Source of the DNA: a virus
IMG/VR virus record: IMGVR_UViG_3300044998_000815
Span: 1-21,682 of that record
Reading direction: 5' to 3' (one strand)
Length of the DNA stretch: 21,682 bases
Below, one piece after another: positions 1,203 through 16,882 of this stretch (position 1 is its first letter; each line of letters opens with the position of its first letter). The position numbers and the translations under genes were made by a program. The notes under the pieces are model-generated. The model saw nothing but the letters and a program-made list of their open reading frames with translations. It had not been told where the DNA came from and did no database searches.

Positions 1203-1798
1203 TGGAGCCGCGCATCGATGTTCATCTGCTCACCCTGAACGAGCCTGCTGAATGGCGTGAGGCCTGCATCGCGAGCCTCGAAGGCGCATCGATCCAGTTG
1301 CACGTTCTGCCCGGCATTCCCGGTCGCATCGGTGAGGCACGCGCCGCTGGCTATGCGCAGGGCACCTTGCCCCTGGTGTCCTTCGTCGATCCCGACGACT
1401 TGTACGAAGCCAGCGCCTTCATGCAACTGGCCGATGCGCTGGATGCCTGCCCGCAGGCGGTGATGGCCTACACCGACGAGGCGCTGATGGACGAGTCTGG
1501 CCGGGACATCGCGGTGCGGCGTCTGGCCTACAGCCGCTGGCAGCACGCCAACAGCGCCAGCCACGTGCACGGCCTGATCGTGATGCGACGCTCCGCCGTC
1601 GAGGCCGTGCTCGAGGAAACGACCGACCTCCACAACTTCGCCGACTGGCTGCTGACCCTGCTGGTGGCCAAGCGCGGCGGTGTGCTGTACCTGCCCATCG
1701 TTGGACGTCACTGGCGGCAGCATCCGCAACAAAGCCACCGCACCGGCGACCCGGAAGCCCTCCGGCGCATCCGGCAAGCCGCCCCCCTTTGGAGATAA
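1202..1798 (+). CDS. GT-A-like (family 2 type) glycosyltransferase in the tail operon
   Basis: The protein has 198 residues. The N-terminus (IDVHLLTLNEPAEWREACIASL) resembles the first Rossmann strand and helix of family 2 glycosyltransferases. A DPDD motif at residues 63-66, preceded by hydrophobic LVSFV, is a good DxD metal and nucleotide-sugar site. A later TDEA and a C-terminal RHWRQH element fit GT2 folds. It is shorter than most GT2 enzymes (230-350 residues), so it may be a minimal catalytic domain. The ATG overlaps the stop of the tail gene by one base and the DUF2793 gene follows after two bases, so it is expressed with late structural genes. This suggests it modifies a virion part or host surface glycan rather than DNA, but the substrate is inference. 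Confidence 0.65.
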   Translation: MEPRIDVHLLTLNEPAEWREACIASLEGASIQLHVLPGIPGRIGEARAAGYAQGTLPLVSFVDPDDLYEASAFMQLADALDACPQAVMAYTDEALMDESGRDIAVRRLAYSRWQHANSASHVHGLIVMRRSAVEAVLEETTDLHNFADWLLTLLVAKRGGVLYLPIVGRHWRQHPQQSHRTGDPEALRRIRQAAPLWR

Positions 1799-1800
1799 GC

Positions 1801-2151
1801 ATGTCATCGACCGACCCGAACCTGGGACTCAACTACGGCTGGACGCTCGGCGAAAGCGGCTGGGACAGCGGCATGGACGCCAACCTCAAGCGCCTCGGCG
1901 CGGTGGTCGGCCTGTCCGTGAAAGACCGCGACCTGACCACGCCACCGGCCAGCCCCGCCAACGGTGACCGCTACATCGTGCCTGCCGCCGCCACCGGCAT
2001 GTGGGCAGGCAAGACCAACCAGATCGCGGTACGCATCGATGGCACGTGGGAGTTTCACCCGCCCAAGGTGGGCTGGCTTTGCTACATCGAGGACGAGGCC
2101 AAGCTCTCGGCCTACAAGTCCACCGGCTGGAGCGCAGGCCTCGCCATCTGA
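1801..2151 (+). CDS. DUF2793 family phage protein
   Basis: The protein has 116 residues. Its pattern, a conserved SVKDRDLTTPPASPANGDRYIV block followed by GMWAGKTNQIAVRIDGTWEF and a GW core, matches my memory of DUF2793, a small beta-rich domain found in tail-fibre or tail-associated proteins of phages and gene-transfer agents. ATG at 1801 is chosen over an upstream in-frame TTG at 1789 because GGAG at 1791-1794 sits six bases before it. It is the last gene before a hairpin that separates the tail genes from the lysis cassette. A role in the tail or in host recognition is inferred from position; no catalytic motif is visible. Confidence 0.7.
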   Translation: MSSTDPNLGLNYGWTLGESGWDSGMDANLKRLGAVVGLSVKDRDLTTPPASPANGDRYIVPAAATGMWAGKTNQIAVRIDGTWEFHPPKVGWLCYIEDEAKLSAYKSTGWSAGLAI

Positions 2152-2174
2152 TCTTCACCCGCCCGCAACCCGCG

Positions 2175-2205
2175 AACCCGCCCACGAGGCGGGTTTGTCG
2201 TTTTT
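2175..2205 (+). terminator. Hairpin with downstream T-run between tail and lysis genes
   Basis: Perfect 8-bp arms AACCCGCC (2175-2182) and GGCGGGTT (2188-2195) flank the loop CACGA. The right arm runs into TGTCG and then TTTTT (2201-2205). The T-run is interrupted, so termination may be partial. It would reduce read-through from tail genes into the lysis cassette or stabilise the upstream mRNA end. Confidence 0.65.
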
Positions 2206-2215
2206 GGAGACCGCA

Positions 2216-2518
2216 ATGACTGACGAACACCAACCCGCCGCCCTCGTGGAGAACATGCTCCTGCTGCGACGCGAGGACTTCGACGAACTGCTCGACCGCG
2301 CCGCTGAACGCGGAGCCGAGCGTTGCCTTGCCCATCTCGGGCTGGAGAACGGCAGTGCCGCGAAGGACATCCGCGAACTGCGCGATCTGCTGGAAGCCTG
2401 GCGCGATGCTCGCCGCACCGCGTGGCAGACCGCGGTCAAGGTCATCACCACCGGCATCCTGGCGGCGCTGCTGGTGGGGGCCGCCATCAAGTTGAAACTG
2501 ATGGGAGGCCCGCAATGA
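2216..2518 (+). CDS. DUF6127-like small membrane protein of the lysis cassette
   Basis: The protein has 100 residues. The N-terminal part is charged and helical (LLLRREDFDELLDRAAERGAERCLAHLGL). A second amphipathic helix follows (IRELRDLLEAWRDARRTAW), then one hydrophobic segment at residues 74-94 (VKVITTGILAALLVGAAIKL) and a short polar tail. This matches DUF6127 proteins next to phage holins as I remember them. ATG 2216 has GGAG at 2206-2209 with good spacing. The stop overlaps the next start as ATGA (2515-2518), so it is coupled to the holin. With one predicted membrane segment it could be a second holin or antiholin; that role is inference. Confidence 0.65.
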   Translation: MTDEHQPAALVENMLLLRREDFDELLDRAAERGAERCLAHLGLENGSAAKDIRELRDLLEAWRDARRTAWQTAVKVITTGILAALLVGAAIKLKLMGGPQ

Positions 2519-2988
2519 TCGAGACACTGCTTGGTGGCCTCCTCGGTGGGGCCTTCCGTCTGGCACCGGAGATCCTGAAGTGGCTGGACCGCAAGGGCGA
2601 GCGCAGTCACGAACTGGCGATGCAGGACAAGGCGCTGGAGTTCGAGAAGCTGCGTGGCGCGCAGCGAATGTCGGAAATCGGCGCGGGTGCCGATGCCGCG
2701 TGGAACGTTGGGGCCATCGAGACCTTGCGAGAGGCCGTCGCGGCGCAGGGGCAGCGTTCTGGCGTGCGCTGGGCCGATGCCCTCTCCAGCAGCGTTCGTC
2801 CCGTCATCACCTACTGGTTCATGGCGCTGTACTGCGCGGCCAAGACTGCAGCATTCGCAGCAGCTATGACTGCTGGCGCTGGCTGGGGCACGGCCATCCT
2901 GCACGCCTGGACGGAGGCCGATCAGGCGCTGTGGGCCGGGGTGCTGAACTTCTGGTTCCTGAATCGAACTCTGGAAAAGGCGCGATGA
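2515..2988 (+). CDS. Holin of the 3-TM (gene-transfer-agent holin-like) type
   Basis: The protein has 157 residues. It has an N-terminal Gly-rich amphipathic stretch (LLGGLLGGAFRLAPEILKWL), a long charged helix (residues 25-75), then membrane-like segments at about 97-118 (VITYWFMALYCAAKTAAFAAAM) and 138-150 (ALWAGVLNFWFLN). The SSVRPVITYWF motif is typical of the Holin_3TMs family. Holins open the inner membrane at the end of the lytic cycle so that the endolysin, which here has no signal peptide, can reach the cell wall. The gene sits between the DUF6127-like gene and HNH gene with ATGA overlaps at both ends. The family assignment is from memory; the role is strengthened by the endolysin two genes downstream. 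Confidence 0.75.
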   Translation: MIETLLGGLLGGAFRLAPEILKWLDRKGERSHELAMQDKALEFEKLRGAQRMSEIGAGADAAWNVGAIETLREAVAAQGQRSGVRWADALSSSVRPVITYWFMALYCAAKTAAFAAAMTAGAGWGTAILHAWTEADQALWAGVLNFWFLNRTLEKAR

Positions 2989-3470
2989 GCTCTGTGATGG
3001 CACGCACCGGCAGACCCGAGACACCGATTCGCTTGCGTTTCTTGTCGAAATTCGAATTCGCCCCGGATACCGGCTGCTGGGTGTGGACGGCGGCACGGCA
3101 TCCACAAGGCTACGGGCTCATCAAGCGCAAGGATGGCGCGCAGCTGCGTGCGCATCGCCTGGCTTACGAGCTGGCGTATGGGCCGATTCCGCAAGGCTTG
3201 CAGGTCTGCCATCGCTGCGACAACCCTCGGTGTGTTCGCCCGAGCCACATGTTCCTCGGCACCGCCGAGGACAACGCTGCAGATATGGTCGCCAAAGGAC
3301 GATCTGCGCGTCTCGCTGGCGAACGAAATGGCGCTGCCCGACTGTCCCGGCGGGACGTCGAGACAATCCGCGCTTCATGTGCCACCTACCGTTCGCTTGC
3401 CCAGCGGTTCAATGTGTCCCCTTCGGCGATCGGATTCATCAAGCGGAGGGAGCGATGGAAACACCTCTGA
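2985..3470 (+). CDS. HNH endonuclease with C-terminal helix-turn-helix
   Basis: The protein has 161 residues. It begins with a GCWVWTAARHPQGYGLIKRKDG-type domain, then AHRLAYE (H57), then a treble-clef nuclease core CHRCDNPRCVRPSH (C75, H76, C78, N80, C83, H88). This is the HNH_3-like signature of phage-borne free-standing homing endonucleases. The C-terminus (LSRRDVETIRASCATYRSLAQRFNVSPSAIGFIKRR, about 120-156) is a helix-turn-helix of the kind fused to such enzymes. It overlaps the holin stop (ATGA) and the endolysin start (16 bases), so it is tightly built into the lysis cassette. Selfish homing activity is the family default; packaging-type HNH function is less likely because terminase genes are not adjacent. 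Confidence 0.85.
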   Translation: MSSVMARTGRPETPIRLRFLSKFEFAPDTGCWVWTAARHPQGYGLIKRKDGAQLRAHRLAYELAYGPIPQGLQVCHRCDNPRCVRPSHMFLGTAEDNAADMVAKGRSARLAGERNGAARLSRRDVETIRASCATYRSLAQRFNVSPSAIGFIKRRERWKHL

Positions 3471-3934
3471 TTCGAGTTCCGCCGCAGGCAATCGAGTTGG
3501 CCAAGCGCTTCGAGGGCTTCCATCGTTTGCCGAAAAACGATCCTGGCCGGGCACATCCCTACGTCTGCCCGGCCGGCTACTGGACCATCGGCTTCGGCCA
3601 CCTGTGCGATCCGCAACACCCGCCGATCACGGAAGTCGAAGCCGAGGTCTATCTGCAGCGTGACCTTCAGGTAGCACTGTCAGCAACGCTGCGCTACTGC
3701 CCGGTGTTGGCCACCGAACCCGAGGGGCGGCTCGCCGCCATCGTGGACTTCACGTTCAACCTCGGCGCGGGGCGGCTGCAGACGTCGACGTTGCGTCGTC
3801 GGGTCAACCAGCGGGACTGGTCAGGCGCCGCCACCGAACTGCGCAGATGGATCTACGGCGGGGGCAGGGTGCTCTCGGGCTTGGTCGCACGCCGCGACAC
3901 CGAGGCAGCCCTGCTTCTGTTGCTGCGATCCTGA
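3455..3934 (+). CDS. Endolysin, GH24 lysozyme (muramidase)
   Basis: The protein has 159 residues. It cleaves the MurNAc-GlcNAc bond of peptidoglycan for host lysis. KRFEGFH supplies the catalytic Glu (E20). CPAGYWTIGFGH supplies C38 and T44, matching the E / D-or-C / T triad of T4/P22-type lysozymes with the Cys variant in place of Asp. The gap between E20 and C38 is longer than in T4 lysozyme. VDFTFNLGAG and RRWIYGGGRVLSGLVARRDTE are the standard later GH24 motifs. No signal peptide or SAR segment is visible, so export should need the holin. The start lies inside the HNH gene, overlapping by 16 bases, with GGAGG just upstream. It is the last recognisable late gene; no Rz/Rz1 follows. Confidence 0.9.
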   Translation: METPLIRVPPQAIELAKRFEGFHRLPKNDPGRAHPYVCPAGYWTIGFGHLCDPQHPPITEVEAEVYLQRDLQVALSATLRYCPVLATEPEGRLAAIVDFTFNLGAGRLQTSTLRRRVNQRDWSGAATELRRWIYGGGRVLSGLVARRDTEAALLLLLRS

Positions 3935-4051
3935 CAACGTGGTGATCTGAGTTGGCTGCATCAACAGGCTAAGCGGCGTACGCGCGCACTACGCCAGGCG
4001 CACAAGAGCGTACTGCGAGTCCTCGTCCTATCCATCTGCTGGTCGGCGAAA

Positions 4052-4057
4052 TACAAT
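4052..4057 (+). promoter_or_regulatory. Possible -10 box for the restriction gene
   Basis: TACAAT matches the sigma-70 -10 consensus at five of six positions and lies 66 bp before the start of the restriction gene, in a locally AT-rich patch. No matching -35 box is found 16-18 bp upstream, so the call is weak. If used, the transcript leader would contain the hairpin at 4081-4102. Confidence 0.25.
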
Positions 4058-4080
4058 TATGTTCGCAAGCCACCGCTTCC

Positions 4081-4102
4081 GCTTGACTCGGGTGAGTCAA
4101 GC
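4081..4102. promoter_or_regulatory. Perfect 9-bp inverted repeat upstream of the restriction gene
   Basis: Arms GCTTGACTC (4081-4089) and GAGTCAAGC (4094-4102) are perfectly complementary around GGGT. It lies 15 bp before the restriction-enzyme start. It could be an operator for a controller protein, a leader hairpin limiting translation, or a terminator of upstream phage transcription; a poly-T run does not follow, which weakens the last option. Confidence 0.5.
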
Positions 4103-4123
4103 TATTTCAAAAAAGGCATGAAT

Positions 4124-5116
4124 ATGCAGCCCAGGACAGATCTTATAAAGCTAACAAACAATAAGGCGCAAATCGAAAAGCTGCTCTTTGAATTGGTCCT
4201 GAATCCACGCCTTAAGGCAATCGAGTGGTCAAGGATAACCAAGCAAACTCCCAACATTAAGATCGGCTATCCTGGGCAGCATCTGGCATCTCTTGTGACA
4301 GGAATGGAAGGGGAGCGGACTGGAGCTCGTGGAAATGACTTGACTGATGGATCTGAGGTTAAGTCTTGTTCAAGGATTGATCAGCTTGACAAGTGCAACT
4401 CTTGCGGTGCTGGTGTAGCGCGCTTGGAAGAGGAATGCGCCGAGTGTGGATCGAAAGACATCAAGAGAAACAACGATTCCAAATGGCTATTTACCATCCG
4501 AACCGAAAGCGATCTTACAACACTTCTGAGGCGGGTTGGTCGAGTTGTTTTGGTTCTGGGCGACTATCCAGAGTTTGACGCTGGAAACTTTGAAACTCTG
4601 CGGTTTCAGGCCTTTGAGATTTGGCCCCAGCACATTCGCAATCGCCGCTTCGCGGAGATTATGACGAACTATTACAACAAGATCTATTTGGAGCACAAGA
4701 AGAAGGACCCCAACAAGACTCCTGCGCCCAAGAATTTCTGGCCGGATCAGTATCAGTTCTATCTTTGCAATCCGATTAGAACCTTTCTCTGCGAAGTGAA
4801 GACGGCCAATACCGATCCAAAACTTGAGATCCTAGAGTATGTGGAGCCGGCGGCCAGCAGAGAGAATCTTCCATCGTTGCCCATGCCAAAGGATGTGCTT
4901 AAGAAGGAGGAGCTGGTGACGCTTGAATCGGCGCCAATAGATGAGCTCCGCGCCTCACTTCCTCCAGGCGTTGTGGCGCACGCAACTGCCAGCCCTAAAG
5001 AACTGATTTCGCAGATGACGCACATCAGCGAAGCGCTTCGCAATCGCCTAGATCTTCGCGACACCGACAAGATTTCAGTATCTAAGTCAGAGTACAAGCG
5101 AAAGAATAAAGCATAG
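4124..5116 (+). CDS. Type II restriction endonuclease, MamI-like
   Basis: The protein has about 330 residues. The region GARGNDLTDGSEVKSCSRIDQLD holds a PD-(D/E)XK-like active site (D74/D77 ... E80-V-K82, counted from the upstream ATG at 4118). It is followed by a four-cysteine zinc ribbon (C93-x2-C96 and C107-x2-C110), an arrangement I associate with the MamI restriction enzyme family (MamI cuts GATNNNNATC). The specificity here is not proven. ATG 4124 has AGG seven bases upstream, whereas ATG 4118 is too close to it, so 4124 is preferred. The C-terminal third is charged and ends in Lys-rich KSEYKRKNKA. Base composition is clearly AT-richer than the phage genes, a sign of transfer. Its methyltransferase partner is convergent at 5480-7393. 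Confidence 0.7.
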   Translation: MQPRTDLIKLTNNKAQIEKLLFELVLNPRLKAIEWSRITKQTPNIKIGYPGQHLASLVTGMEGERTGARGNDLTDGSEVKSCSRIDQLDKCNSCGAGVARLEEECAECGSKDIKRNNDSKWLFTIRTESDLTTLLRRVGRVVLVLGDYPEFDAGNFETLRFQAFEIWPQHIRNRRFAEIMTNYYNKIYLEHKKKDPNKTPAPKNFWPDQYQFYLCNPIRTFLCEVKTANTDPKLEILEYVEPAASRENLPSLPMPKDVLKKEELVTLESAPIDELRASLPPGVVAHATASPKELISQMTHISEALRNRLDLRDTDKISVSKSEYKRKNKA

Positions 5117-5156
5117 CGCAGCGTTCCGACTAAACTATTTTACGGCTGGTGCCTGA

Positions 5157-5453
5157 ATGAGCGAAGGCGGTACCCCGGGGGGCAGCGAGTATCTGGAGGT
5201 GAGAGGGCGTCTATGCGCAGCCTTGGCCCGCGATCTTGCTGACAGCATACTTTCCGACTCGCGTGGAGCTGCACGCCTAGCCGAACTACTTAACGAAGGA
5301 GTCGAAGGCTTCTCAGCCTCGTCCGACTTGGAATTGCTTGAAGCCATCTTTGAGGCGGGGCTCGAGGGCCAAAATTCCGATGACGTTGAGAAGTTAATTG
5401 GATTCATGGCCGATCAAAGTCAAGACGACCAGTCCGCCTACCGTCCGTACTGA
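5157..5453 (+). CDS. Small acidic protein of unknown role inside the restriction-modification locus
   Basis: The predicted protein has 98 residues. It is rich in Glu, Asp, Leu and Ala and probably all-helical (RLCAALARDLADSILSDSRGAARLAELLNEGVEGF; LELLEAIFEAGLEGQNSDDVEKLIGFMADQ). I do not recognise a family. It starts 40 bp after the restriction gene and ends 26 bp before the 3' end of the convergent methyltransferase gene. ATG 5157 has no strong Shine-Dalgarno sequence. An acidic partner could modulate or inhibit the nuclease, or be a subunit; this is speculation. Codon use resembles the restriction gene rather than the phage, which supports its reality. Confidence 0.5.
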   Translation: MSEGGTPGGSEYLEVRGRLCAALARDLADSILSDSRGAARLAELLNEGVEGFSASSDLELLEAIFEAGLEGQNSDDVEKLIGFMADQSQDDQSAYRPY

Positions 5454-5479
5454 AGCGCTGACCCTACACCGCGCACCAA

Positions 5480-7393
5480 TTAAGCAATTTCGAGCGCGGC
5501 GAGCTTTGATTCCAGGTTCCATTGGAGTTGGCTTGACTCGCGTGCGAGCCTGGCCTCTTCCTTCAGGATCGCGGCGATTTCCTCTGCTTGTGAATTGGCC
5601 TCCAGTAGCCGATGGGGCACCTTAAGCATCGCCACATCCTTCGGGTGAAGGTGCGCAGTTTGGCCCCTTACCATGCCCTGAAGTTGGGCCATGACTGCAG
5701 GACTGCGCAGGAAGGCCAATAGGATGAATGGATCAATTCGATCAGGCTTGGCGCGAATGAGCATCACCTCACCGACGAACGAAGCGGCGCCGCCAACAAA
5801 TTCCGGAATCTCAGTAATGATATCCACCTTCTTGGCGATGTATACCGGACTATGAGCGGAGGACGTCATCAATATGTCGCCAATTTGAAGCAGGAGATTT
5901 GACTTTTTCCGCTTTTCGCGCTCACTCAGCGGGATAAAGTTTCGGTCTCGCGCCGCCCACTCTATCCCTTTTCCGGACAGGTTTCCGACCTTCACCAAGA
6001 AGAGTCCTTCATCGGAATATGCGCTCCGCCCTGGTGTTCTGCCCGTCGTTATAACTTCGGTCAACTCTCCAAGCGGAATGCCCTCAGTCTCCACCTCCTT
6101 GTCGGAGGCAAGAAGCGATGGCAAGAGTGAAAATGAATCCTGCTTCTTGTGATCACCCAACCATCGGCAATTGGTCCCACCGTCTCCGCCGCTTACCAAT
6201 TGGCGAACTTCGGCAGCAATGCGTGCGAGCTGACCCCCGGGTTTGGGTCGGCCAGTCGAGTCATATCCGCAATTGGTGACCTCAGCCAACCACATCCGGT
6301 TGGGCTCGCTTGCTTCGGTAGCTTGCTTGTACTTCCTGGCAAAAAGTACAACCGTGTTTGTCTGTGTTCCGGTTGCATAGAAAGTTTCGGGAGGTAGGGT
6401 CATCAGCCCCTCCACGTATCCTTGCGTGCCAAAGTAGCGGCGCGGCAAATCAACGCGCTCGCTGTGGTTGGTGACAACACTTCGCGGAAGCACGATTGCC
6501 AGTCTTCCGCCGGGTTTCAGGAGCCGGAAGCACTGTTCTATGAAAATGATCTCACTCTGCTGCCTCGGATATGGCCGACCATCGGCACCGATGCAACTCG
6601 TAAATGCTGCTGCATCTTGCTTTTCAGGGTCGATGTAGACCCCAAATGGCGGATTGGTGAAAATGCAGTCGAACGAGTTGAACCAGTCTGCAGTTTCATG
6701 ATTGCCAATATCGAATAGTGAGTCCTGGAGGAGTCCGTTGAATGTCAACCAAGGTACGTGCCCGAGGTTTAGGTCTGCAAGGGCAAGCATTCTGGGGTTC
6801 TTATCGATACCCCAAACTCTCGGACTTTGCCGGCTGTTTTGTCCCCACAATCGAGCCACTTCGAGCAGAAAAGTGCCAGACCCACACGCCGGGTCAAGAA
6901 CTCTCTGGTCTGGTGTTGGAGCAACGATTTCAACAGATGCACGGACAATTTCGTCCGGTGTCAAGTAAATGCCGAGGCCTTTCCGAATTTCTGGCGGCAC
7001 GAACTCCCTCAGCGCTGCGCTTCTCACATCCAGGCCAATGTCCGTGATGCTTACCTCTGCGAAGATCGAAGCAACGCTTGCGAGGCACTCATCGCTCAGC
7101 TTGAGCTTTGCATCAGGCCAGACCTGCCTGATCGCGGGAGGGGCGTCTTTGACGTACGCCTTGAAGCTACCGCGGATCTGCTTCGCGACAGTTGCAGCTG
7201 GCAGTGTGAAGCGGCCCTTTGGATCGATACTTGCCACCAGGTCAGGCTGCTGCGAGGCGGAGCCCTCGTCGTTCTCCTTGAAGAACAGGAACTTGAGCAG
7301 TTCGTCGAACGACTCCTGGGGCTGGAGGCCGTCGATGTTGCGCATCATGTTGTGCGCCTCGCGGTAGATCGAAGCAAGCGCCTTGAAGTCCAT
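5480..7393 (-). CDS. N6-adenine DNA methyltransferase with one fused HsdS-like recognition domain
   Basis: The protein has 637 residues. A helical HsdM-like N-terminal part (1-140) is followed by an adenine methylase core: GIYLTPDEIV leads into motif I DPACGSGTFLLEVA (167-180), and motif IV NPPFG is at 247-251. LLKPGGRLAIVLP and the TGTQTNTVVLFARK element complete an N6_Mtase domain. From about 435 (IPLGELTEVITTGRTPG, LFLVKVGNLSGKGI) to the end is a single target-recognition domain plus a helical tail, as in HsdS half-subunits. It methylates adenine to protect host DNA from the convergent restriction enzyme. A single recognition domain suggests a homodimer reading a symmetric split site, consistent with a GATNNNNATC-type target. 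Start ATG 7393; only a weak GGAAA precedes it. Confidence 0.85.
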   Translation of the reverse strand: MDFKALASIYREAHNMMRNIDGLQPQESFDELLKFLFFKENDEGSASQQPDLVASIDPKGRFTLPAATVAKQIRGSFKAYVKDAPPAIRQVWPDAKLKLSDECLASVASIFAEVSITDIGLDVRSAALREFVPPEIRKGLGIYLTPDEIVRASVEIVAPTPDQRVLDPACGSGTFLLEVARLWGQNSRQSPRVWGIDKNPRMLALADLNLGHVPWLTFNGLLQDSLFDIGNHETADWFNSFDCIFTNPPFGVYIDPEKQDAAAFTSCIGADGRPYPRQQSEIIFIEQCFRLLKPGGRLAIVLPRSVVTNHSERVDLPRRYFGTQGYVEGLMTLPPETFYATGTQTNTVVLFARKYKQATEASEPNRMWLAEVTNCGYDSTGRPKPGGQLARIAAEVRQLVSGGDGGTNCRWLGDHKKQDSFSLLPSLLASDKEVETEGIPLGELTEVITTGRTPGRSAYSDEGLFLVKVGNLSGKGIEWAARDRNFIPLSEREKRKKSNLLLQIGDILMTSSAHSPVYIAKKVDIITEIPEFVGGAASFVGEVMLIRAKPDRIDPFILLAFLRSPAVMAQLQGMVRGQTAHLHPKDVAMLKVPHRLLEANSQAEEIAAILKEEARLARESSQLQWNLESKLAALEIA

Positions 7394-7587
7394 AGAACGA
7401 TTTCCAATGCTGCGTTAGAATTATTTCCATTGTGCCATCTACGGTGCACTCTGGCAACGCCGGTCAGTGAACACACTTGCGGATGCGCACAGGTTTTCGA
7501 CCCAAGACCTGGCCCTGGCTGCCGCTCGCCTGCCATTGCTGACGAGCGGCTCACCATCACCTCTCCGGCCAGGAAGGAGCTTATGCA

Positions 7588-11263: not shown

Positions 11264-11294
11264 AAAACCCAACCCTTATCGGTTGGGTTTTTTT
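11264..11294 (+). terminator. Intrinsic terminator downstream of McrC
   Basis: An 11-bp perfect stem, AAAACCCAACC (11264-11274) with GGTTGGGTTTT (11281-11291), and a six-base loop CTTATC run into seven consecutive T (11288-11294). This is a textbook rho-independent terminator on the plus strand, ending McrBC transcription before the convergent operon. On the minus strand the T-run is short, so it is less effective there. Confidence 0.85.
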
Positions 11295-11513
11295 ATGCCC
11301 GGAATGCCAGTGTTGGCGCGGTTTCCGGCCTTGCTGCGACGGACGCCGCCGCCCCGGATGACCCGGTTTCGGGCGGTTTTCCGTTCTCTGTCCCCGCCCA
11401 TTCTCTGTTTCTGCGAAGGAGGACTTCGCACCCACCCCAGAGCTGGCGCGGGTTTCCGGCGGCTTGTTCGTCAGGCAAACCACCTGCACGCTGGCGACCC
11501 GACCCCGAACGGG

Positions 11514-13631
11514 CTACCCGTTCACGATAGGCCGGACCTCCCAGGTGATTGCCATGCCGGGCCGGTAGACCACCTCGTTGCCGTACTTGATGCTGGCCTT
11601 CAGGTGTTCTGCCAAGGGCTTGTCGTACTTTTCGATCTGCCTGATGGCGCGGTCGACGGCGTTGCGGAAGGCGTCACGGACGTTCTTGCGCTTGTCTCCG
11701 ACCCTGCGCTGTCGCCCGCCGAGGCCCTTGCCGCCCTCGATGTACTTGACCAGGGCCGCCATCTCCTTCTCGATTTCCTCAATGCGGGCGTGGTCATCAC
11801 GTTCACGCGCTTCTTCCATTTCCTCGAACAGTTCCCTCGCTTGCTGCTTGCACTCGTTCAGCGCACGCCTGTCCGCGACGTCTCCGGCGTCCCCCAAGGG
11901 GATACCCTGAGTCACTTGGTAGCCATCTTCAATATCCTCCGGAGCGATGCCGCTGCCGGCAGGCTGTTCAATTGTGTTGACGGCATTTCCGACAGCGATC
12001 TCATAGACCGACATCTCTCGATCCGGAAACGCCAGCAGGAGGTTGATGTACTCCGCGCCCTTGTCGACGTTGAGCAGGCAGATGGTGTTGCGGCCCTGAA
12101 ATCGCGTCTCCCAGACCGCACCGCGTTTGCGAAAGAAGTTCTCCGGCTGCTTCTCCAACGAAATCACCGCCGGTACCGAGTTCACCGAAGCGGACTCGTA
12201 GACCGTTCGCAGCAGACAGTCGCCGGGCAATGAGCGCTCCCGGATCTGGGTGAAGTAACGCCGCCCGAGCTCGTCGAGCGCTCCCGTCACCTCGTCGGCG
12301 TGCCGCTTGTAGAGATCGAATACCCGCTGCGCAGCCTGACCGGCGCTGCTGTAGTTCAGGTACTTGAGTACGCGACCGACGTCGGGGTAGCTGCTGATGA
12401 ACTGTGTCACGTCCGTCAGGTTCTTCACCTGGTTGGCTCGCTCCAGGTAGGCGGCGGCCATGATCTTGTCCTCGCCTTTGTCCCGGCTCTGGGTGAAGAC
12501 GTCGACCTTGTAGTGCTCCACCGGGTCGTGCTGATCGGCCTTGGCGGCGAGAATGGCGAAGCGCCGGTCGATGCACTGCGAGCAGCCGCCGCAATGGGTG
12601 TGCTGATTCGTCATCTCCCAAGTGTGCGTGCAGGTCATCGAGTGCTTGATCAAGTCGTGGCAGCCCGCGTCGGTGATGATCTTGACGACGTCGGCCTTGG
12701 TTTTCCAGATGTAGGGGTTCTCGACGGTGAAAGGCTCGCCTGCCACCAATGAAAGCAGGTCTTGGAAGCCTTTCATCACTCTCGGGTGCGTTGTCCTTGT
12801 GGCACGGCCACCGACCACCTGAGCGCACACAGGAAGGTTCAGGCTGATGACGCCGTTCTCGTAAAAGCGGACGCTCTTGAGATTGAGCATCCGAGCAATC
12901 GTCGCGCCGATGGAGACGTACAGGAACGACCGGCTGCGCTGGGTGTACTCATGGTTCAGCTCCTTGGCTTTGTGCACGCGGACGCTGATGCGATGCGGCA
13001 CGTTGTCGCCAGCCTTCTCGGCCAGCATCTGCTCAAGGGTGCGGTGACGCTTGTTGAGCTTGGAAGTGGACTTGTGGGTGACCAGGAGCACGCGTCGCTT
13101 CTGGTTCACGACCTCGTCGATGGCGCCTGCCAGCGAGTCCAGTCCGCCTGAAAACATCACCACCTGCTCCGGCTTTCCGTACACCTGCTGGGTGTCGTCA
13201 AACTGGAGGTATTGCTGGAATGGGTGCTCCTGGTCGAGCTTGACGAAATCGAAGCGGTATTGGTCGTCGGACAGGAATCCGAGCGTCGAGCACAACGTGT
13301 CCTGCACCTGCGCGCTGCTCCAGAAGTCCGGATCGCGCACCGGCACGACGAAATGCAGATCGCGCCGCCAGCCATCGCCAAAGGTATCGACATCGTCCGC
13401 GCCGCGCCGGATGACCTGGTCGGCGCTGTAGACGTAGGTGGCGATCTCCAGCAGATCGTGGAACCGCGACGGCACGCTACTGAACAGCTTGCTGTGGACG
13501 TCCTCGATGCGCAGGGTGATGTTGCCGTGCCCCGGCCTGCCCGAGAGTCGGAGCCGCAGATCGCGCGCAGGATCTTCGCTGATGCCTTGGGCGGACACGT
13601 TGCCGCAGAGAACGTATCGCTTATCTTGCAT
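11514..13631 (-). CDS. QueC-like PP-loop ATP-dependent enzyme with C-terminal regulatory-type domain (defence candidate)
   Basis: The protein has 705 residues. The N-terminal 150 residues form an extra beta-rich domain. The PP-loop of the QueC / 7-cyano-7-deazaguanine synthase fold follows: VVMFSGGLDSLAGA (SGGLDS 161-166). A QueC-type zinc site uses C334, C347, C350 and C353 (CGGCSQCIDRR). From about 440 a helical linker leads to a winged-helix-like stretch (VWETRFQGRNTICLLNVDKGAEYINLLLAFPDREMSVYEI, 506-545) and a coiled coil. GLGGR (636-640) and a Tyr/Pro/Trp end (Y689, P691, W697) follow; this C-terminal module recalls regulatory ATPases and cyclases. True QueC is about 230 residues and works with QueD, QueE and FolE, none of which is here. 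Together with its partner this points to a Qat- or type IV CBASS-like defence use. It overlaps the upstream gene by 11 bases. Confidence 0.75.
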   Translation of the reverse strand: MQDKRYVLCGNVSAQGISEDPARDLRLRLSGRPGHGNITLRIEDVHSKLFSSVPSRFHDLLEIATYVYSADQVIRRGADDVDTFGDGWRRDLHFVVPVRDPDFWSSAQVQDTLCSTLGFLSDDQYRFDFVKLDQEHPFQQYLQFDDTQQVYGKPEQVVMFSGGLDSLAGAIDEVVNQKRRVLLVTHKSTSKLNKRHRTLEQMLAEKAGDNVPHRISVRVHKAKELNHEYTQRSRSFLYVSIGATIARMLNLKSVRFYENGVISLNLPVCAQVVGGRATRTTHPRVMKGFQDLLSLVAGEPFTVENPYIWKTKADVVKIITDAGCHDLIKHSMTCTHTWEMTNQHTHCGGCSQCIDRRFAILAAKADQHDPVEHYKVDVFTQSRDKGEDKIMAAAYLERANQVKNLTDVTQFISSYPDVGRVLKYLNYSSAGQAAQRVFDLYKRHADEVTGALDELGRRYFTQIRERSLPGDCLLRTVYESASVNSVPAVISLEKQPENFFRKRGAVWETRFQGRNTICLLNVDKGAEYINLLLAFPDREMSVYEIAVGNAVNTIEQPAGSGIAPEDIEDGYQVTQGIPLGDAGDVADRRALNECKQQARELFEEMEEARERDDHARIEEIEKEMAALVKYIEGGKGLGGRQRRVGDKRKNVRDAFRNAVDRAIRQIEKYDKPLAEHLKASIKYGNEVVYRPGMAITWEVRPIVNG

Positions 13632-14409
13632 CGCTACTCGCTCCCATCTTCAACTCGTCCCTCATCTTCTTCAGCGCGTAGCCCGCGAATCCGTCCGACG
13701 ATTTTCTGGAGATGTCGCCGCCCTCGTGAAAGCGGTGCTTGGAAAACCACTCGCTCGAAAACTGCTCGACGATGAGCGAGGCTTCCCGGGTATGGATTTG
13801 CAGTGCGGCATTGAATTCGGCGGCCTGATTCATCGTGGCAAAACGCATCCCCTCGCCGAGCTGGGTGTTGACGACCTTGCTCAGGAAATACTGGAGACCC
13901 TCGTTGGCCAGCCGAGCGAAAAAGTGCCGTGAAAACTCGCCGAACTCCCGAGGCTTGCCCAAGTCGGCCAAGGCCGCACGCATCGTGTCCGGGTCGGAAG
14001 AGAACAGCGAATGCAGCTTGGGGGCGAGCACATCGTTGACGGCACCGACGATGGCCCGGTTGGCGAGCATGCCGAGATCGGAGCGCTTGCCGTTGCCTTC
14101 TACGCGCCGATCCAGCGCCTCGGTGATTGCCGTGGTCACATCGGTGAGCGAGGGATCGGCGGGGAGATGGATGCCCGCCGCGGCGAGATGCAAGAGGATG
14201 TCGGGCTTCTTGGCGGCAATCGCCATCTGCGTCATCAGCCAGACGGCCTCGGTGTAGCCGACATCCTTCATGACGAAGGAGAAAGCCTTTTCCGCCGCCG
14301 CGATGGTGGCTTGGGCGATCTGAGACACGTTGGCGCCGGCGGCGATCAGGCCGACGACCTCCTTCCACTCCTTCGTCCTTGGCAGAACCCCGAGCCGAAC
14401 ATGCCCCAT
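13621..14409 (-). CDS. Unrecognised 262-residue partner of the QueC-like protein, N-terminus Met-Gly
   Basis: I do not recognise a family with certainty. The N-terminus reads MGHVRLGVLPRTKEWKEVVGLI, a distinctive Gly-start with a short basic strand. It is followed by ANVSQIAQATIAAAEKAFSFV and a mostly helical body with no catalytic motif, signal peptide or clear membrane segment. It lies 33 bp after the regulator gene and overlaps the QueC-like start by 11 bases, so the two proteins are made together. In the Qat system a protein of similar size (QatB) precedes the QueC-like QatC; position and N-terminal Gly are the only similarities I can claim. Recent reports that QueC-like defence enzymes attach a deazaguanine to a partner's N-terminal Gly make this protein a possible substrate. 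That is inference. Start ATG 14409 has a GGGGG-rich ribosome site. Confidence 0.75.
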   Translation of the reverse strand: MGHVRLGVLPRTKEWKEVVGLIAAGANVSQIAQATIAAAEKAFSFVMKDVGYTEAVWLMTQMAIAAKKPDILLHLAAAGIHLPADPSLTDVTTAITEALDRRVEGNGKRSDLGMLANRAIVGAVNDVLAPKLHSLFSSDPDTMRAALADLGKPREFGEFSRHFFARLANEGLQYFLSKVVNTQLGEGMRFATMNQAAEFNAALQIHTREASLIVEQFSSEWFSKHRFHEGGDISRKSSDGFAGYALKKMRDELKMGASSDAR

Positions 14410-14442
14410 CCTGTTTCCCCCGTAGAGATCAGTGCATCGCCG

Positions 14443-14676
14443 TCAATCGTCGCGCTTGATCACGACGATGCTGCGTGCCTTCTTTGCTTCCTTCCTCACA
14501 TACCCCTTGCGCACCAACTGTGTGATCTGTTCATGAGCGCTGGCGTGGCTGATCCCCAGCGCCTCGGCCAGCTCCTTGACGGTGGGCGGCAGGCCTGTGC
14601 TGTCGAGGATCTGACAGATCGCCCTCAACGTCCTGGCCTGCGGCTCCGTAATCCCCTCGGTCTTTCGCTTGCTCAT
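14443..14676 (-). CDS. LexA-type winged-helix mini-regulator, probable autorepressor
   Basis: The protein has 77 residues. ITEPQARTLRAICQILDSTGLPPTVKELAEALGISHASAHEQITQLVRKGYVRKEAKKARSI follows the LexA DNA-binding domain closely: helix 1, the GxPPTVKEL turn, recognition helix SHASAHEQI and wing KGYVR. The S24 protease half of LexA is absent, so it cannot be inactivated by RecA-driven self-cleavage. ATG 14676 is preferred over an upstream TTG at 14703, because AGGAG (minus strand, 14684-14688) lies seven bases before it and 14703 is inside the -10 box. It is the first gene of the operon with the 262-residue and QueC-like proteins. The palindromic promoter just upstream is its likely target, giving negative feedback on the defence operon. 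Confidence 0.85.
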   Translation of the reverse strand: MSKRKTEGITEPQARTLRAICQILDSTGLPPTVKELAEALGISHASAHEQITQLVRKGYVRKEAKKARSIVVIKRDD

Positions 14677-14701: not shown

Positions 14702-14730
14702 AATATATGACCTGATGAATATCAGGTCAA
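14702..14730 (-). promoter_or_regulatory. Sigma-70 promoter of the QueC-like operon
   Basis: On the minus strand TTGACC (14725-14730) and TATATT (14702-14707) are separated by exactly 17 bp. Both are close to the -35 and -10 consensus. Transcription would start near 14695, giving a leader of about 20 bases with AGGAG before ATG 14676. It is the best promoter match I found in the window. Confidence 0.85.
14708..14729. promoter_or_regulatory. Palindromic operator filling the promoter spacer
   Basis: Perfect 9-bp arms TGACCTGAT (14708-14716) and ATCAGGTCA (14721-14729) flank GAAT. The palindrome covers the whole -35/-10 spacer and most of the -35 box. A dimeric winged-helix protein bound here would block RNA polymerase. 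The adjacent LexA-type regulator is the obvious binder. It is not a standard SOS box (CTGT-N8-ACAG). Confidence 0.8.
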
Positions 14731-14877: not shown

Positions 14878-15066
14878 ATGACCGTCGAACAAACACTCCC
14901 CGAATTGATGTCGCCCTGCGCCCGGGCGCGCGAGGCCGCAGCCATCCTTGCGGCCGCCATTGCCCGCCTGCATGCCACCCGCCCCTGCGACAGCGAGATT
15001 TCTCTTGGCTTCCCGGCAGCCGAGCGCGTTCATACAAACCCCTCTACAGAAGGAGTTTGCCAATGA
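14878..15066 (+). CDS. Small protein upstream of DUF2924, unknown role
   Basis: The predicted protein has 62 residues from ATG 14878 (an in-frame ATG at 14857 would add seven). It contains a helical stretch (CARAREAAAILAAAIARLHA) and a C-terminal LGFPAAERVHTNPS motif. It is supported by its stop overlapping the DUF2924 start as ATGA (15063-15066), the same coupling seen at the next two gene junctions. It has no recognisable domain and no clear promoter; an inverted repeat AACCGGC/GCCGGTT (14760-14806) lies upstream. It is probably the first gene of the recombinase operon. Confidence 0.5.
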   Translation: MTVEQTLPELMSPCARAREAAAILAAAIARLHATRPCDSEISLGFPAAERVHTNPSTEGVCQ

Positions 15067-15518
15067 ATGCATCGACAACCGGCCCGTCCCTGGCGGCGCA
15101 GATCGCCAATCTGCCCAAACTGCCCATGAGCGAGTTGTGGGCGCTTTGGGACAAGTATTTCCCGCGCCGCCCGCCGCACCACAACCGGAACTATGTCGAA
15201 GGTCGGCTCGCCTACAAGATCCAGGAGGAAGCGCTGGGCACCAAGCTCGAGGTGCAGACGCAGATGGCGCGCATCGGCGAAGCGCAATCGAAGATCAAGA
15301 CGCAGCGCGGCGTCGAAGTCCAGGTGGTGCCGGGCACCGTGCTGGTGCGCGAATTCGACAACCGCGAGCACCGCGTGACCGCGCAGGCCGACGGCAGCTT
15401 CGAATATGAAGGCCGCCGCTTCAAAAGCCTGTCTGGTGTCGCGCGCCACATCACCGGTACCCAATGGTCGGGACCGCTGTTCTTTGGCATCACCAAGACC
15501 AAGCGGGGTGGGAAATGA
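15063..15518 (+). CDS. DUF2924 family protein
   Basis: The protein has 151 residues. LPKLPMSELWALWDKYFPRRPPHHNRNYVEGRLAYKIQEEALG is the DUF2924 N-terminal signature. The C-terminal half has VEVQVVPGTVLVREFDNREHRVTAQADGSFEYEGRRFKSLSGVARHITGTQWSGPLFFGI, a small RAMA-like beta domain. The family is nearly always next to a serine recombinase in Proteobacteria, as here, but its biochemical role is not known to me; DNA binding or help in recombination is a reasonable guess. ATG 15063 has AGGAG at 15051-15055 with a seven-base gap. Both ends overlap neighbours as ATGA. Confidence 0.85.
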   Translation: MNASTTGPSLAAQIANLPKLPMSELWALWDKYFPRRPPHHNRNYVEGRLAYKIQEEALGTKLEVQTQMARIGEAQSKIKTQRGVEVQVVPGTVLVREFDNREHRVTAQADGSFEYEGRRFKSLSGVARHITGTQWSGPLFFGITKTKRGGK

Positions 15519-16882
15519 AAGCGGTGGTCACCAAGAAACGCTGCGCCGTCTACACCCGCGTGTCCACGGATGAGCGCCTCGACCAGTCCTTCAACTCGCT
15601 CGACGCCCAGCGCGAGGCGGGCCAGGCCTACATCGTGAGCCAGCGCGCCGAGGGCTGGCTGCCGGTGGGCGACGACTACGACGACGGCGGCTACTCGGGC
15701 GGAAACATGGAACGCCCGGCCTTGAAGCGCCTGCTGGCCGACATCGTCGCCGACCAGATCGACATCGTGGTGGTCTACAAGATCGACCGCCTGACCCGCA
15801 GCCTGACCGACTTCGCCAAGCTGGTGGAGGTGTTCGAGCGCCACAAGGTGTCGTTCGTGTCGGTCACCCAGCAATTCAACACCACGACCTCGATGGGACG
15901 GCTGATGCTCAACATCCTGCTGTCCTTCGCCCAGTTCGAGCGCGAGGTCACGGGCGAGCGCATCCGCGACAAGATCGCCGCCAGCAAGCGCAAGGGCTTG
16001 TGGATGGGCGGCTACACGCCGCTGGGCTACGAGATCAAGGACCGCAAGCTCGTCATCGAGGAAAAGGACGCCGAGATCATCCGGCGGATCTTCACGCGCT
16101 TCACCGAGCTGCGCTCGATCACCGACGTCGTCCGCGAACTCGCCCTCGAAGGCCTGACCACCAAGCCCAACCGTCTCAAGGACGGCCGCGTGCGCAACGG
16201 CACGCCGATGGACAAGAAGTACATCTCCAAGCTGCTGCGCAATCCGATCTACGTCGGCGAGATCCGCCACAAGGGAACGGTGTTTGCCGGGCAGCACGAG
16301 CCGATCATCACCCGCCAACTGTGGGATCGGGTGCAGGGCATCCTGGCCGAGGATGCCTACGAGCGGATGGGCAAGACCCAAACCCGCCACAAGACCGATG
16401 CCTTGCTGCGCGGGCTGATGTACGGCCCCGACGGCGGCAAGTACCACATCACTTACAGCAAGAAGCCCTCGGGCAAGAAGTACCGCTACTACATCCCCAA
16501 GGCCGACAGCCGCTACGGCTACCGCAGCAGCGCCACCGGCATGATCCCGGCCGACCAGATCGAGGAAGTGGTGGTGAACCTGCTGATCGGCGCGCTGCAG
16601 TCGCCCGAGAGCATTCAGGGAGTCTGGAACACCGTGCGCAGCCAGTACCCGGAGATCGACGAACCGACCACCGTGCTGGCCATGCGCCGTCTCGGCGAGG
16701 TCTGGAAACAACTGTTCCCCGCCGAGCAAGTGCGTCTGGTCAATCTGCTGATCGAGCGTGTCCAGCTCCTCTCCGACGGCGTCGACATCGTCTGGCGCGA
16801 GTCCGGCTGGCGGGAGCTGGCCGGGGAACTGCGTCCTGACAGCATCGGCGGCGAGATGCTGGAGCTGGAGGCACTGTCATGA
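15515..16882 (+). CDS. Large serine recombinase (site-specific integrase)
   Basis: The protein has 455 residues. The resolvase catalytic domain (about 9-155) contains CAVYTRVSTDERLDQSFNSLDAQREA with the nucleophile S17, the GGYSGGNMERPALKRLL block, and YKIDRLTRSLTDF and REVTGERIRDKIAASKRKG with the conserved arginines. The recombinase domain (about 165-270) follows, with MGGYTPLGYEIKD and NPIYVGEIRHKGTVF. The next region (LLRGLMYGPDGGKYHITYSKK) aligns with the zinc-ribbon part but lacks its usual cysteines. The protein is a little short for the class. It cuts and joins att sites to insert or excise the element. It is coupled to DUF2924 before it and an HTH gene after it by ATGA overlaps. Confidence 0.92.
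   Translation: MKAVVTKKRCAVYTRVSTDERLDQSFNSLDAQREAGQAYIVSQRAEGWLPVGDDYDDGGYSGGNMERPALKRLLADIVADQIDIVVVYKIDRLTRSLTDFAKLVEVFERHKVSFVSVTQQFNTTTSMGRLMLNILLSFAQFEREVTGERIRDKIAASKRKGLWMGGYTPLGYEIKDRKLVIEEKDAEIIRRIFTRFTELRSITDVVRELALEGLTTKPNRLKDGRVRNGTPMDKKYISKLLRNPIYVGEIRHKGTVFAGQHEPIITRQLWDRVQGILAEDAYERMGKTQTRHKTDALLRGLMYGPDGGKYHITYSKKPSGKKYRYYIPKADSRYGYRSSATGMIPADQIEEVVVNLLIGALQSPESIQGVWNTVRSQYPEIDEPTTVLAMRRLGEVWKQLFPAEQVRLVNLLIERVQLLSDGVDIVWRESGWRELAGELRPDSIGGEMLELEALS

What the first reader, a model, noticed from the sequence alone, without database searches (positions are those of the whole stretch)
11514..14676. Regulated three-gene QueC-like operon as a candidate defence or modification system
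A LexA-like mini-regulator, a Met-Gly protein of unknown family and a 705-residue QueC-like enzyme form one minus-strand operon next to McrBC and a restriction system. QueD, QueE, FolE and TGT genes are absent, so this is not queuosine synthesis. Qat and type IV CBASS use QueC-like proteins, but their ATPase, TatD or nucleotidyltransferase partners are missing here. This looks like a minimal relative of such systems.
Basis: partly seen in the sequence, partly recalled or inferred. Interest (0 to 1): 0.85.

Follow-up and report, generated by a model that had tools for sequence, protein, structure and literature searches.

The report
QatBC-like pair with swappable effector tail
The window holds a widespread two-gene cassette, probably antiviral, in which a QueC-like enzyme related to the phage-defence enzyme QatC is paired with a small protein starting Met-Gly-His and carries an interchangeable tail (nuclease, TIR, protease or DNA-binding-like), which may be the missing output step of QatC-type immunity.

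Summary
In detail: three minus-strand genes encode a 77-aa LexA-type wHTH protein, a 262-aa Met-Gly protein and a 705-aa QueC-like protein. The last is QatC-like (PADLOC QatC 5e-60; PDB QatC 3e-32), with QatC's Thr278/Thr280 pocket rather than the Tyr/Asp of QueC and Cap9. With the Met-Gly protein as bait, 60 loci were found in about a dozen phyla; in 59 the next gene is this QueC-like protein, and the 60th is cut by its contig end. The loci carry no qatA, qatD, queD, queE, folE or tgt. The partner keeps MGHxRxGxLPxTxxW at its N-terminus at 21% overall identity, as expected of a substrate tail. After a QatC-length part, the enzymes carry C-terminal modules swapped at least eight times: PD-(D/E)xK nuclease, TIR, trypsin-like protease, HTH-like domains and, in the window, the C-terminal domain of AAA/STAND-TPR proteins. 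I read it as a two-gene relative of the QatBC core with its output module fused on. Defence, modification and gating are inferred, not shown. The regulator, with a conserved palindromic operator, belongs only to a branch carried by a serine-recombinase element. McrBC and the restriction system are not conserved neighbours.

The parts
11514..13631 (-). QueC-like (QatC-like) protein, 705 aa; aa 1-~452 match the QatC architecture (N-terminal extension, QueC core with SGGLDS 161-166, Thr278/Thr280 in TRTTHP, zinc motif, C-terminal helix with LYKRHADEV)
   Evidence: PADLOC QatC 5e-60; NCBIfam QatC 228.6 bits, cut-off 280; PDB QatC 9vlk/9zee
11514..12176 (-). C-terminal module of the QueC-like protein (about aa 486-705): same domain as at the C-termini of ~1,100-1,240-aa AAA_16/STAND-TPR proteins; the part exchanged for nuclease, TIR, protease or HTH-like domains in relatives
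13621..14409 (-). Met-Gly-His partner protein, 262 aa, all-alpha (10 helices), disordered first ~10 residues with the conserved MGHxRxGxLPxTxxW; proposed modification substrate, possible remote QatB homologue
14443..14676 (-). 77-aa LexA-type winged-helix protein, probable autorepressor of the operon; only in the mobile-element branch
14708..14729 (.). perfect palindrome TGACCTGAT-N4-ATCAGGTCA, predicted operator overlapping the operon promoter; conserved in about two dozen loci including Thermodesulfobacteriota
   Evidence: sequence
14702..14730 (-). predicted sigma-70 promoter: TTGACC - 17 nt - TATATT, overlapping the palindrome
   Evidence: sequence
11265..11513 (-). conserved ~220-nt noncoding stretch after the stop codon, ending in an intrinsic terminator (AACCCAACC...GGTTGGGTTTT)
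   Evidence: no Rfam family at gathering threshold
15057..15518 (+). DUF2924 protein, divergent from the operon; conserved neighbour of the regulator-bearing branch
15464..16882 (+). large serine recombinase of the same element

Best explanation
This is a two-gene system that works like the QatB-QatC core of Qat immunity, with its output module fused to the enzyme. Inferred mechanism: Met aminopeptidase exposes the N-terminal Gly of the MGH protein; the flexible MGHxRxGxLPxTxxW tail enters the QueC-like active site; the enzyme, using ATP, conjugates a carboxylate-bearing small molecule (7-carboxy-7-deazaguanine or, more likely given Thr278/Thr280, another acid) to the Gly amine; the modified or unmodified state of the complex gates the C-terminal module. 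In most relatives outside the window's branch that module is a PD-(D/E)xK nuclease, elsewhere TIR, protease or DNA-binding-like, and in the window a domain from STAND/TPR signalling ATPases. The likely purpose is anti-phage or anti-mobile-element defence by abortive or DNA-targeting action. In the window branch the operon is carried by a serine-recombinase element and is probably kept low by an autorepressor acting on a palindromic operator. Shown computationally: the pairing, the conserved tail, the QatC-like active site, the module swaps, purifying selection. Inferred: the chemistry, the gating, the defence role, the repressor.
For: Pairing: 59 of 60 loci found with the Met-Gly family alone as bait have the QueC-like gene immediately downstream, usually overlapping by 4 or 11 bp; the exception ends at a contig edge. 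Seven further intact pairs came from phylum samples. QatC-like enzyme. Its group is separated from qatABCD QatC with 92/98 support. SGGxDS in 56/57 and the [TS]R[TS]THP motif in 53/57 full-length members. Tail: in 21 relatives that do not match the N-terminal search pattern, M1 G2 H3 R5 W15 are invariant; 5 of 13 columns that are at least 95% conserved fall in the first 15 of 261 (P=3e-4). The tail is modelled as disordered (pLDDT 36) before ten helices, which resembles the description of QatB with its essential Gly2 and conserved Pro16 and Trp18 (PMC13279940). Swapped modules: TIR_2 1e-16 (L108), Trypsin_2 1.1e-14 (L104), DpnII-MboI REase PF18742 8e-11 (L046) and 3e-9 (L086); at least 8 changes on the core tree. 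Window module equals the C-terminus of AAA_16/TPR proteins. No qatA or qatD; no queD/E, folE, tgt. [quoted passage not shown] Precedent: QatBC alone protects against phage lambda (PMC13279940).
Against: No phage or biochemical data for any member. NCBIfam's QatC cut-off is not reached (228.6 against 280 bits). Homology of the MGH protein to QatB is only suggestive (hhalign probability 42%, E 2.6e-4; above all 30 block-shuffles, but with a larger alignment only 33.9 against a shuffle maximum of 31.7), and Foldseek finds no match at E<=0.001. Defence-gene neighbours are only moderately frequent. The window's own C-terminal module has no known activity, and its model is poor (pLDDT 59). The G2R case (L186) is a single locus.
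Confidence: 0.6

Rival explanations
1. Same pair, but the main output is gene regulation or a stress response: the QueC-like protein modifies the MGH protein to control a DNA-binding C-terminal domain (the window module and several others look wHTH/HTH-like), so the cassette is a signalling switch rather than a defence effector.
For: Window-type module is shared with AAA_16/STAND-TPR signalling proteins; a weak Trans_reg_C match in L075 (2.3e-4); HTH-like C-termini in L147 and others by eye, with only weak Pfam hits.
Against: The commonest module outside the window's branch is a nuclease, and TIR and trypsin-like domains replace it: an effector repertoire typical of defence. Patchy distribution (about 1% of sampled genomes) and carriage on mobile elements.
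Confidence: 0.2
2. Maintenance or addiction module: the fused effector is a toxin held in check by the MGH protein, and the cassette stabilises the mobile element that carries it.
For: Tight gene overlap, autorepressor-like regulator with palindromic operator, carriage beside a serine recombinase, toxic-type domains.
Against: Members in other phyla lack the regulator and the recombinase; the strict MGH tail and conserved catalytic site are not explained by simple toxin inhibition.
Confidence: 0.1
3. An enzyme pair for small-molecule or tRNA/DNA base modification related to preQ0 chemistry, with the MGH protein as a subunit rather than a substrate.
For: QueC core fold (PF06508 2.3e-9).
Against: TIGR00364 30.8 against a cut-off of 150.3; Tyr/Asp pocket replaced by Thr; no queuosine genes alongside; QatC does not complement queC (PMC13329287); fused nuclease/TIR/protease modules.
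Confidence: 0.07
4. An ordinary qatABCD system that has lost qatA and qatD in this element.
For: QatC-like enzyme; only 34% of QatC-cluster genes have qatA nearby (PMC13329287).
Against: Separate clade from qatABCD QatC (92/98 and 94/89); different substrate motif (MGH..LP....W, not MGTS); fused C-terminal modules; no qatA or qatD at any of 60 loci.
Confidence: 0.03

Closest known systems
QatB-QatC core of qatABCD (PMC13279940; PDB QatC chains 9zee/9zef, 9vlk/9vll)
   Same: QatC-length enzyme with N-terminal extension, SGGxDS, Thr278/Thr280, QatB-binding loop region and C-terminal helices; partner gene just upstream, overlapping, about 260 aa, all-alpha with an N-terminal Met-Gly tail containing a conserved Pro and Trp
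   Different: No QatA or QatD; partner tail is MGHxRxGxLPxTxxW, short (about 12 aa), not MGTS with a 30-90-aa linker; extra C-terminal module fused to the enzyme; separate clade; partner homology to QatB not established
Type IV CBASS Cap9 / CD-NTase (deazaguanylation, PMC11996544)
   Same: QueC-family enzyme paired with a protein whose N-terminal Gly (after Met) is the acceptor
   Different: Partner is not a nucleotidyltransferase; Tyr/Asp nucleobase pocket absent; no Cap10; enzyme nearly four times longer
Canonical QueC (preQ0 synthase)
   Same: Rossmann-type ATP-pyrophosphatase core and zinc site
   Different: Far below the family cut-off, substrate pocket changed, no pathway genes alongside
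DpnII/MboI-type PD-(D/E)xK nucleases, TIR, Trypsin_2 effectors of defence systems
   Same: These domains form the C-termini of the relatives
   Different: Here fused to a QueC-like enzyme; in the window another domain takes their place

Membership tests
Qat (qatABCD) | QatC-type QueC-like enzyme | tested here: inconclusive
   PADLOC QatC 5e-60 and PDB QatC 3e-32, but NCBIfam equivalog cut-off not reached (228.6 vs 280 bits) and separate clade
Qat (qatABCD) | QatA KAP-family ATPase gene in the operon | tested here: not met
   QatA profile finds nothing at E<=10 in ORFs of 60 loci
Qat (qatABCD) | QatD TatD nuclease gene in the operon | tested here: not met
   QatD profile finds nothing at E<=10
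Qat (qatABCD) | QatB homologue with MGTS N-terminus and long disordered tail | tested here: inconclusive
   Tail is MGH.R.G.LP.T..W, so MGTS is not met; remote similarity hhalign prob 42%, E 2.6e-4; no Foldseek match at E<=0.001
Qat (qatABCD) | Protection against phage | not testable with these tools
   no wet assay possible
Type IV CBASS | CD-NTase partner | tested here: not met
   partner has no Pfam family at E<=0.1 and is modelled as all-alpha
Type IV CBASS | Cap9 active site with Tyr/Asp nucleobase recognition | tested here: not met
   Thr278/Thr280 (TRTTHP) in alignment with QatC structures
Type IV CBASS | Cap10 (TGT-family) gene | tested here: not met
   no E. coli TGT homologue by tblastn (E<=0.01) in window or 60 loci; a very divergent Cap10 could be missed by this one query
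Canonical QueC / queuosine pathway | TIGR00364 above cut-off, queD/queE neighbours | tested here: not met
   30.8 vs 150.3 bits; no queD, queE, folE, tgt, queA homologues
LexA repressor | wHTH domain plus S24 self-cleaving peptidase | tested here: not met
   77 aa holding only the wHTH (PF01726 4.9e-14; TIGR00498 48 vs 111 bits)

The most novel reading that the evidence does not exclude
A new defence-system family in which a QueC-like enzyme modifies the N-terminal glycine of a small sentinel protein and thereby gates an interchangeable effector fused to the enzyme itself (nuclease, TIR, protease or DNA-binding module), using a substrate that need not be the queuosine-pathway intermediate: 4 of 24 carrier genomes lack both QueD and canonical QueC, although completeness of those genomes is unknown and one of them has a broken copy of the system.
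Probability: 0.45. Interest if true: 0.86.

Novelty: new variant of a known kind. Interest (0 to 1): 0.72.

Why it matters
How QatBC stops phages is an open question: its reaction could not be reconstituted, and no effector is known (PMC13279940). This family keeps the same kind of pair but fuses recognisable effectors to the enzyme, so that the output becomes testable, for example with nuclease-dead, TIR-dead or protease-dead mutants. It also offers a natural test of the substrate, because some carriers appear to lack queuosine synthesis. It suggests that N-terminal glycine modification by QueC-like enzymes is a general, modular immune switch.

Tried and rejected
Foldseek of the Met-Gly protein against PDB and BFVD gave no match at E<=0.001; the QatBC entries may postdate that PDB copy (up to 2026-04-08). 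AlphaFold of the C-terminal module was poor (pLDDT 59, pTM 0.39) and its Foldseek run uninformative. Profile search of PDB sequences with the Met-Gly alignment gave only weak, implausible hits. The conserved 3' noncoding stretch showed no convincing covariation apart from its terminator and no Rfam hit at gathering threshold (chance-level hits), so I do not claim a structured RNA. Link to McrBC or the MamI-type restriction system: rejected, not conserved near other copies. SOS control: rejected for lack of the LexA peptidase domain. Pfam hits DUF1090/DUF7260 in the tail: below cut-off, treated as chance (coiled coil). Literature searches for QueC or QatC with TIR, effector or fusion terms found no description of this family in the held library; subscription papers and most preprints are not held there, so novelty is provisional.
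Full report
WHAT IS THERE. The 705-aa protein (11514-13631, minus) overlaps the 262-aa Met-Gly protein (13621-14409) by 11 bp. A 77-aa LexA-type winged-helix protein (ATG at 14676, stop at 14443) lies upstream. The window is a 21,682-b IMG/VR record. On the other side of the promoter, and divergent from it, are a DUF2924 protein and a large serine recombinase (15057-16882), followed by phage-type genes including a BRO-N/anti-repressor.

THE ENZYME. Profile searches place the 705-aa protein nearest QatC: PADLOC QatC 5e-60, NCBIfam QatC 1.2e-67 (228.6 bits, below its cut-off of 280), and PDB QatC chains 9vlk and 9zee at 3e-32 and 2.5e-26. Canonical QueC is far off (TIGR00364 30.8 bits, cut-off 150.3). 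The alignment to 9zee puts Thr278 and Thr280 of the TRTTHP motif on the two threonines that Gao et al. (PMC13279940) found essential in QatC; QueC and Cap9 have Tyr/Asp there. The QatB-binding loop region (265-282) aligns without gaps. QatC proteins end at about 446-466 aa; here the comparable C-terminal helix (LYKRHADEV) lies near aa 440-452 and a further ~250 aa follow (position of the helix read by eye). In relatives, SGGxDS is present in 56 of 57 full-length proteins, the zinc motif in 57 and the [TS]R[TS]THP motif in 53.

THE PARTNER IS A FAMILY, AND IT IS ALWAYS WITH THE ENZYME. A tblastn search of plasmids gave a pair in Leptospira noguchii whose Met-Gly protein is only 21-23% identical but begins MGHERLGILPKTRSW, against MGHVRLGVLPRTKEW in the window. 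With that alignment as bait, and no use of the QueC-like sequence, a scan of 84,980 genomes returned 60 loci in Pseudomonadota, Thermodesulfobacteriota, Verrucomicrobiota, Bacillota, Bacteroidota, Ignavibacteriota, Planctomycetota, Chloroflexota, Armatimonadota, Actinomycetota, Parcubacteria, KSB1 and Bipolaricaulota. In 59 the next gene downstream is the QueC-like protein; the 60th (L109) runs off its contig about 160 bases into the Met-Gly gene. Phylum samples put the frequency at about 1% and added seven new intact pairs; one further pair has a frameshifted enzyme (L149) and one is wholly decayed (L158). Profiles of QatA and QatD find nothing around the 60 loci, and E. coli QueD, QueE, FolE, TGT and QueA find nothing in 741 kb.

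THE TAIL. One of the two scan patterns was itself N-terminal, so I restricted the test to 21 relatives that do not match it: M1, G2, H3, R5 and W15 are still invariant, and 5 of the 13 columns that are at least 95% conserved fall in the first 15 of 261 (P=3e-4). The AlphaFold model has a disordered first ~10 residues (pLDDT 36) and ten helices (mean pLDDT 82). QatB is described as ten helices with a disordered tail carrying MGTS, a conserved Pro16 and Trp18, and an essential Gly2 (PMC13279940). Homology to QatB is suggestive only: hhalign gives probability 42%, E 2.6e-4 over 196 columns, above all 30 block-shuffled controls (maximum 26.5 against 35.8); with a larger alignment the margin shrinks (33.9 against a maximum of 31.7 in 60). 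One natural variant is telling but single: in L186 the catalytic core of the enzyme is deleted, the partner is otherwise open and conserved, and Gly2 has become Arg.

THE SWAPPED MODULE. The C-terminal part after the QatC-length region differs between relatives. Nineteen end in a PD-(D/E)xK nuclease (PF18742 DpnII-MboI, 8e-11 in Leptospira and 3e-9 in L086; 8e-6, just below its cut-off, in L084), one in a TIR domain (TIR_2 1e-16, L108), one in a trypsin-like protease (Trypsin_2 1.1e-14, His/Asp/Ser motifs present, L104). L148 ends in another nuclease-like stretch (EPD...ELKNK, by eye; no Pfam hit), and several end in short domains that look like HTH but have only weak Pfam support. The window type is shared by most Pseudomonadota, Thermodesulfobacteriota and Verrucomicrobiota members. 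It matches, at E down to 8e-32, the last ~200 aa of ~1,100-1,240-aa proteins in Actinomycetota and Chloroflexota that carry AAA_16 or STAND ATPase and TPR domains. On a tree of the cores, the modules need at least 8 changes in 52 proteins; the protease sits inside a Bacillota clade of nucleases. The enzymes of this system form one group (92/98) apart from qatABCD QatC (94/89). dN/dS is 0.05-0.20 for regulator, partner and core and 0.13-0.28 for the module.

REGULATOR AND CARRIER. The 77-aa regulator, DUF2924, recombinase and ParB-like genes accompany the pair in the Pseudomonadota and Thermodesulfobacteriota branch only, in nearly every locus whose contig reaches far enough; they are absent in the other phyla. 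A perfect palindrome, TGACCTGAT-N4-ATCAGGTCA (14708-14729), overlaps a TTGACC -35 and fills the 17-nt spacer before a TATATT -10, and is kept in about two dozen loci, which suggests autorepression. McrBC and the MamI-type system of the window are not found near other copies.

HOW IT PROBABLY WORKS. By analogy with Cap9, where the enzyme joins 7-carboxy-7-deazaguanine to the N-terminal Gly of its partner, and with QatBC, where both genes alone suffice against lambda (PMC13279940, PMC13329287), I propose that the enzyme modifies Gly2 of the MGH protein and that this state gates the fused module. Shown: pairing, motif conservation, module swapping, selection. Inferred: modification, gating, defence. 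The substrate may not be CDG: the pocket is of the Thr type, and four of 24 carrier genomes lack detectable QueD and canonical QueC (G013, G653, G1236, G1496). Their completeness is not known, and G653's enzyme gene is broken.

VERDICT. It is not a member of qatABCD or type IV CBASS, since defining features were tested and not met, but it works like the QatBC core. It is best called a new variant: a two-gene QatBC-like system with a fused, exchangeable output module. I found no description of it in the held literature.

Noticed in passing
window 11265-11513 (minus strand); L052, L054, L055, L062-L064, L067, L037, L038, L043 after the QueC-like stop: About 220 nt of conserved noncoding DNA (79% mean column identity in 12 loci, with invariant CGAAC, GCAGAAACAGAGAA and CGTCC.TCGCA blocks) ending in an intrinsic terminator; no Rfam hit at gathering threshold and no clear covariation; replaced by other genes in L056, L059, L061, L074, L079. 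It could be a recombination or attachment site, or an sRNA.
   Followed up: partly
window 4118-5116 (+) and 5480-7393 (-): A MamI-type REase (PF09567 3e-41) with a type II N6-methyltransferase (PADLOC 2.6e-182) that has a type I specificity-like C-terminal part.
   Followed up: no
L047 (Bradyrhizobium japonicum USDA 123 plasmid) 1055-6808: Another QueC-like operon: a long protein that looks (by eye) like a caspase-like CHAT protease with repeats, then an MGSG... Gly-rich Met-Gly protein, a QatC-like protein and an ASCH-domain protein; a further QueC-linked arrangement without qatA or qatD.
   Followed up: no
L049 (Methylocystis sp. MJC1 plasmid) 4294-7417: A 190-aa protein beginning MSDGPHRSLPMRKAWKDL next to a QueC-like protein and an XRE regulator; the tail resembles MGH.R.G.LP....W, but with Ser in place of Gly2.
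   Followed up: no
L126, L127, L128, L141, L142, L157, L158: Truncated or frameshifted remnants of the Met-Gly gene, showing frequent decay of the cassette.
   Followed up: partly
L186 6001-6774: Met-Gly protein intact except Gly2 to Arg; the downstream QueC-like gene has lost its catalytic core by deletion.
   Followed up: yes
C-termini of ORFs in L175-L184 (Actinomycetota/Chloroflexota): An apparently unnamed ~200-aa domain at the C-terminus of AAA_16/STAND-TPR proteins (WxxxF..KGxxYLxxLL.xPxRExxxxDL ... GLGGRxR ... RAIxxxL..HL...IRTGxxCxYxPD), with no Pfam family of its own found here; possibly a wHTH.
   Followed up: partly
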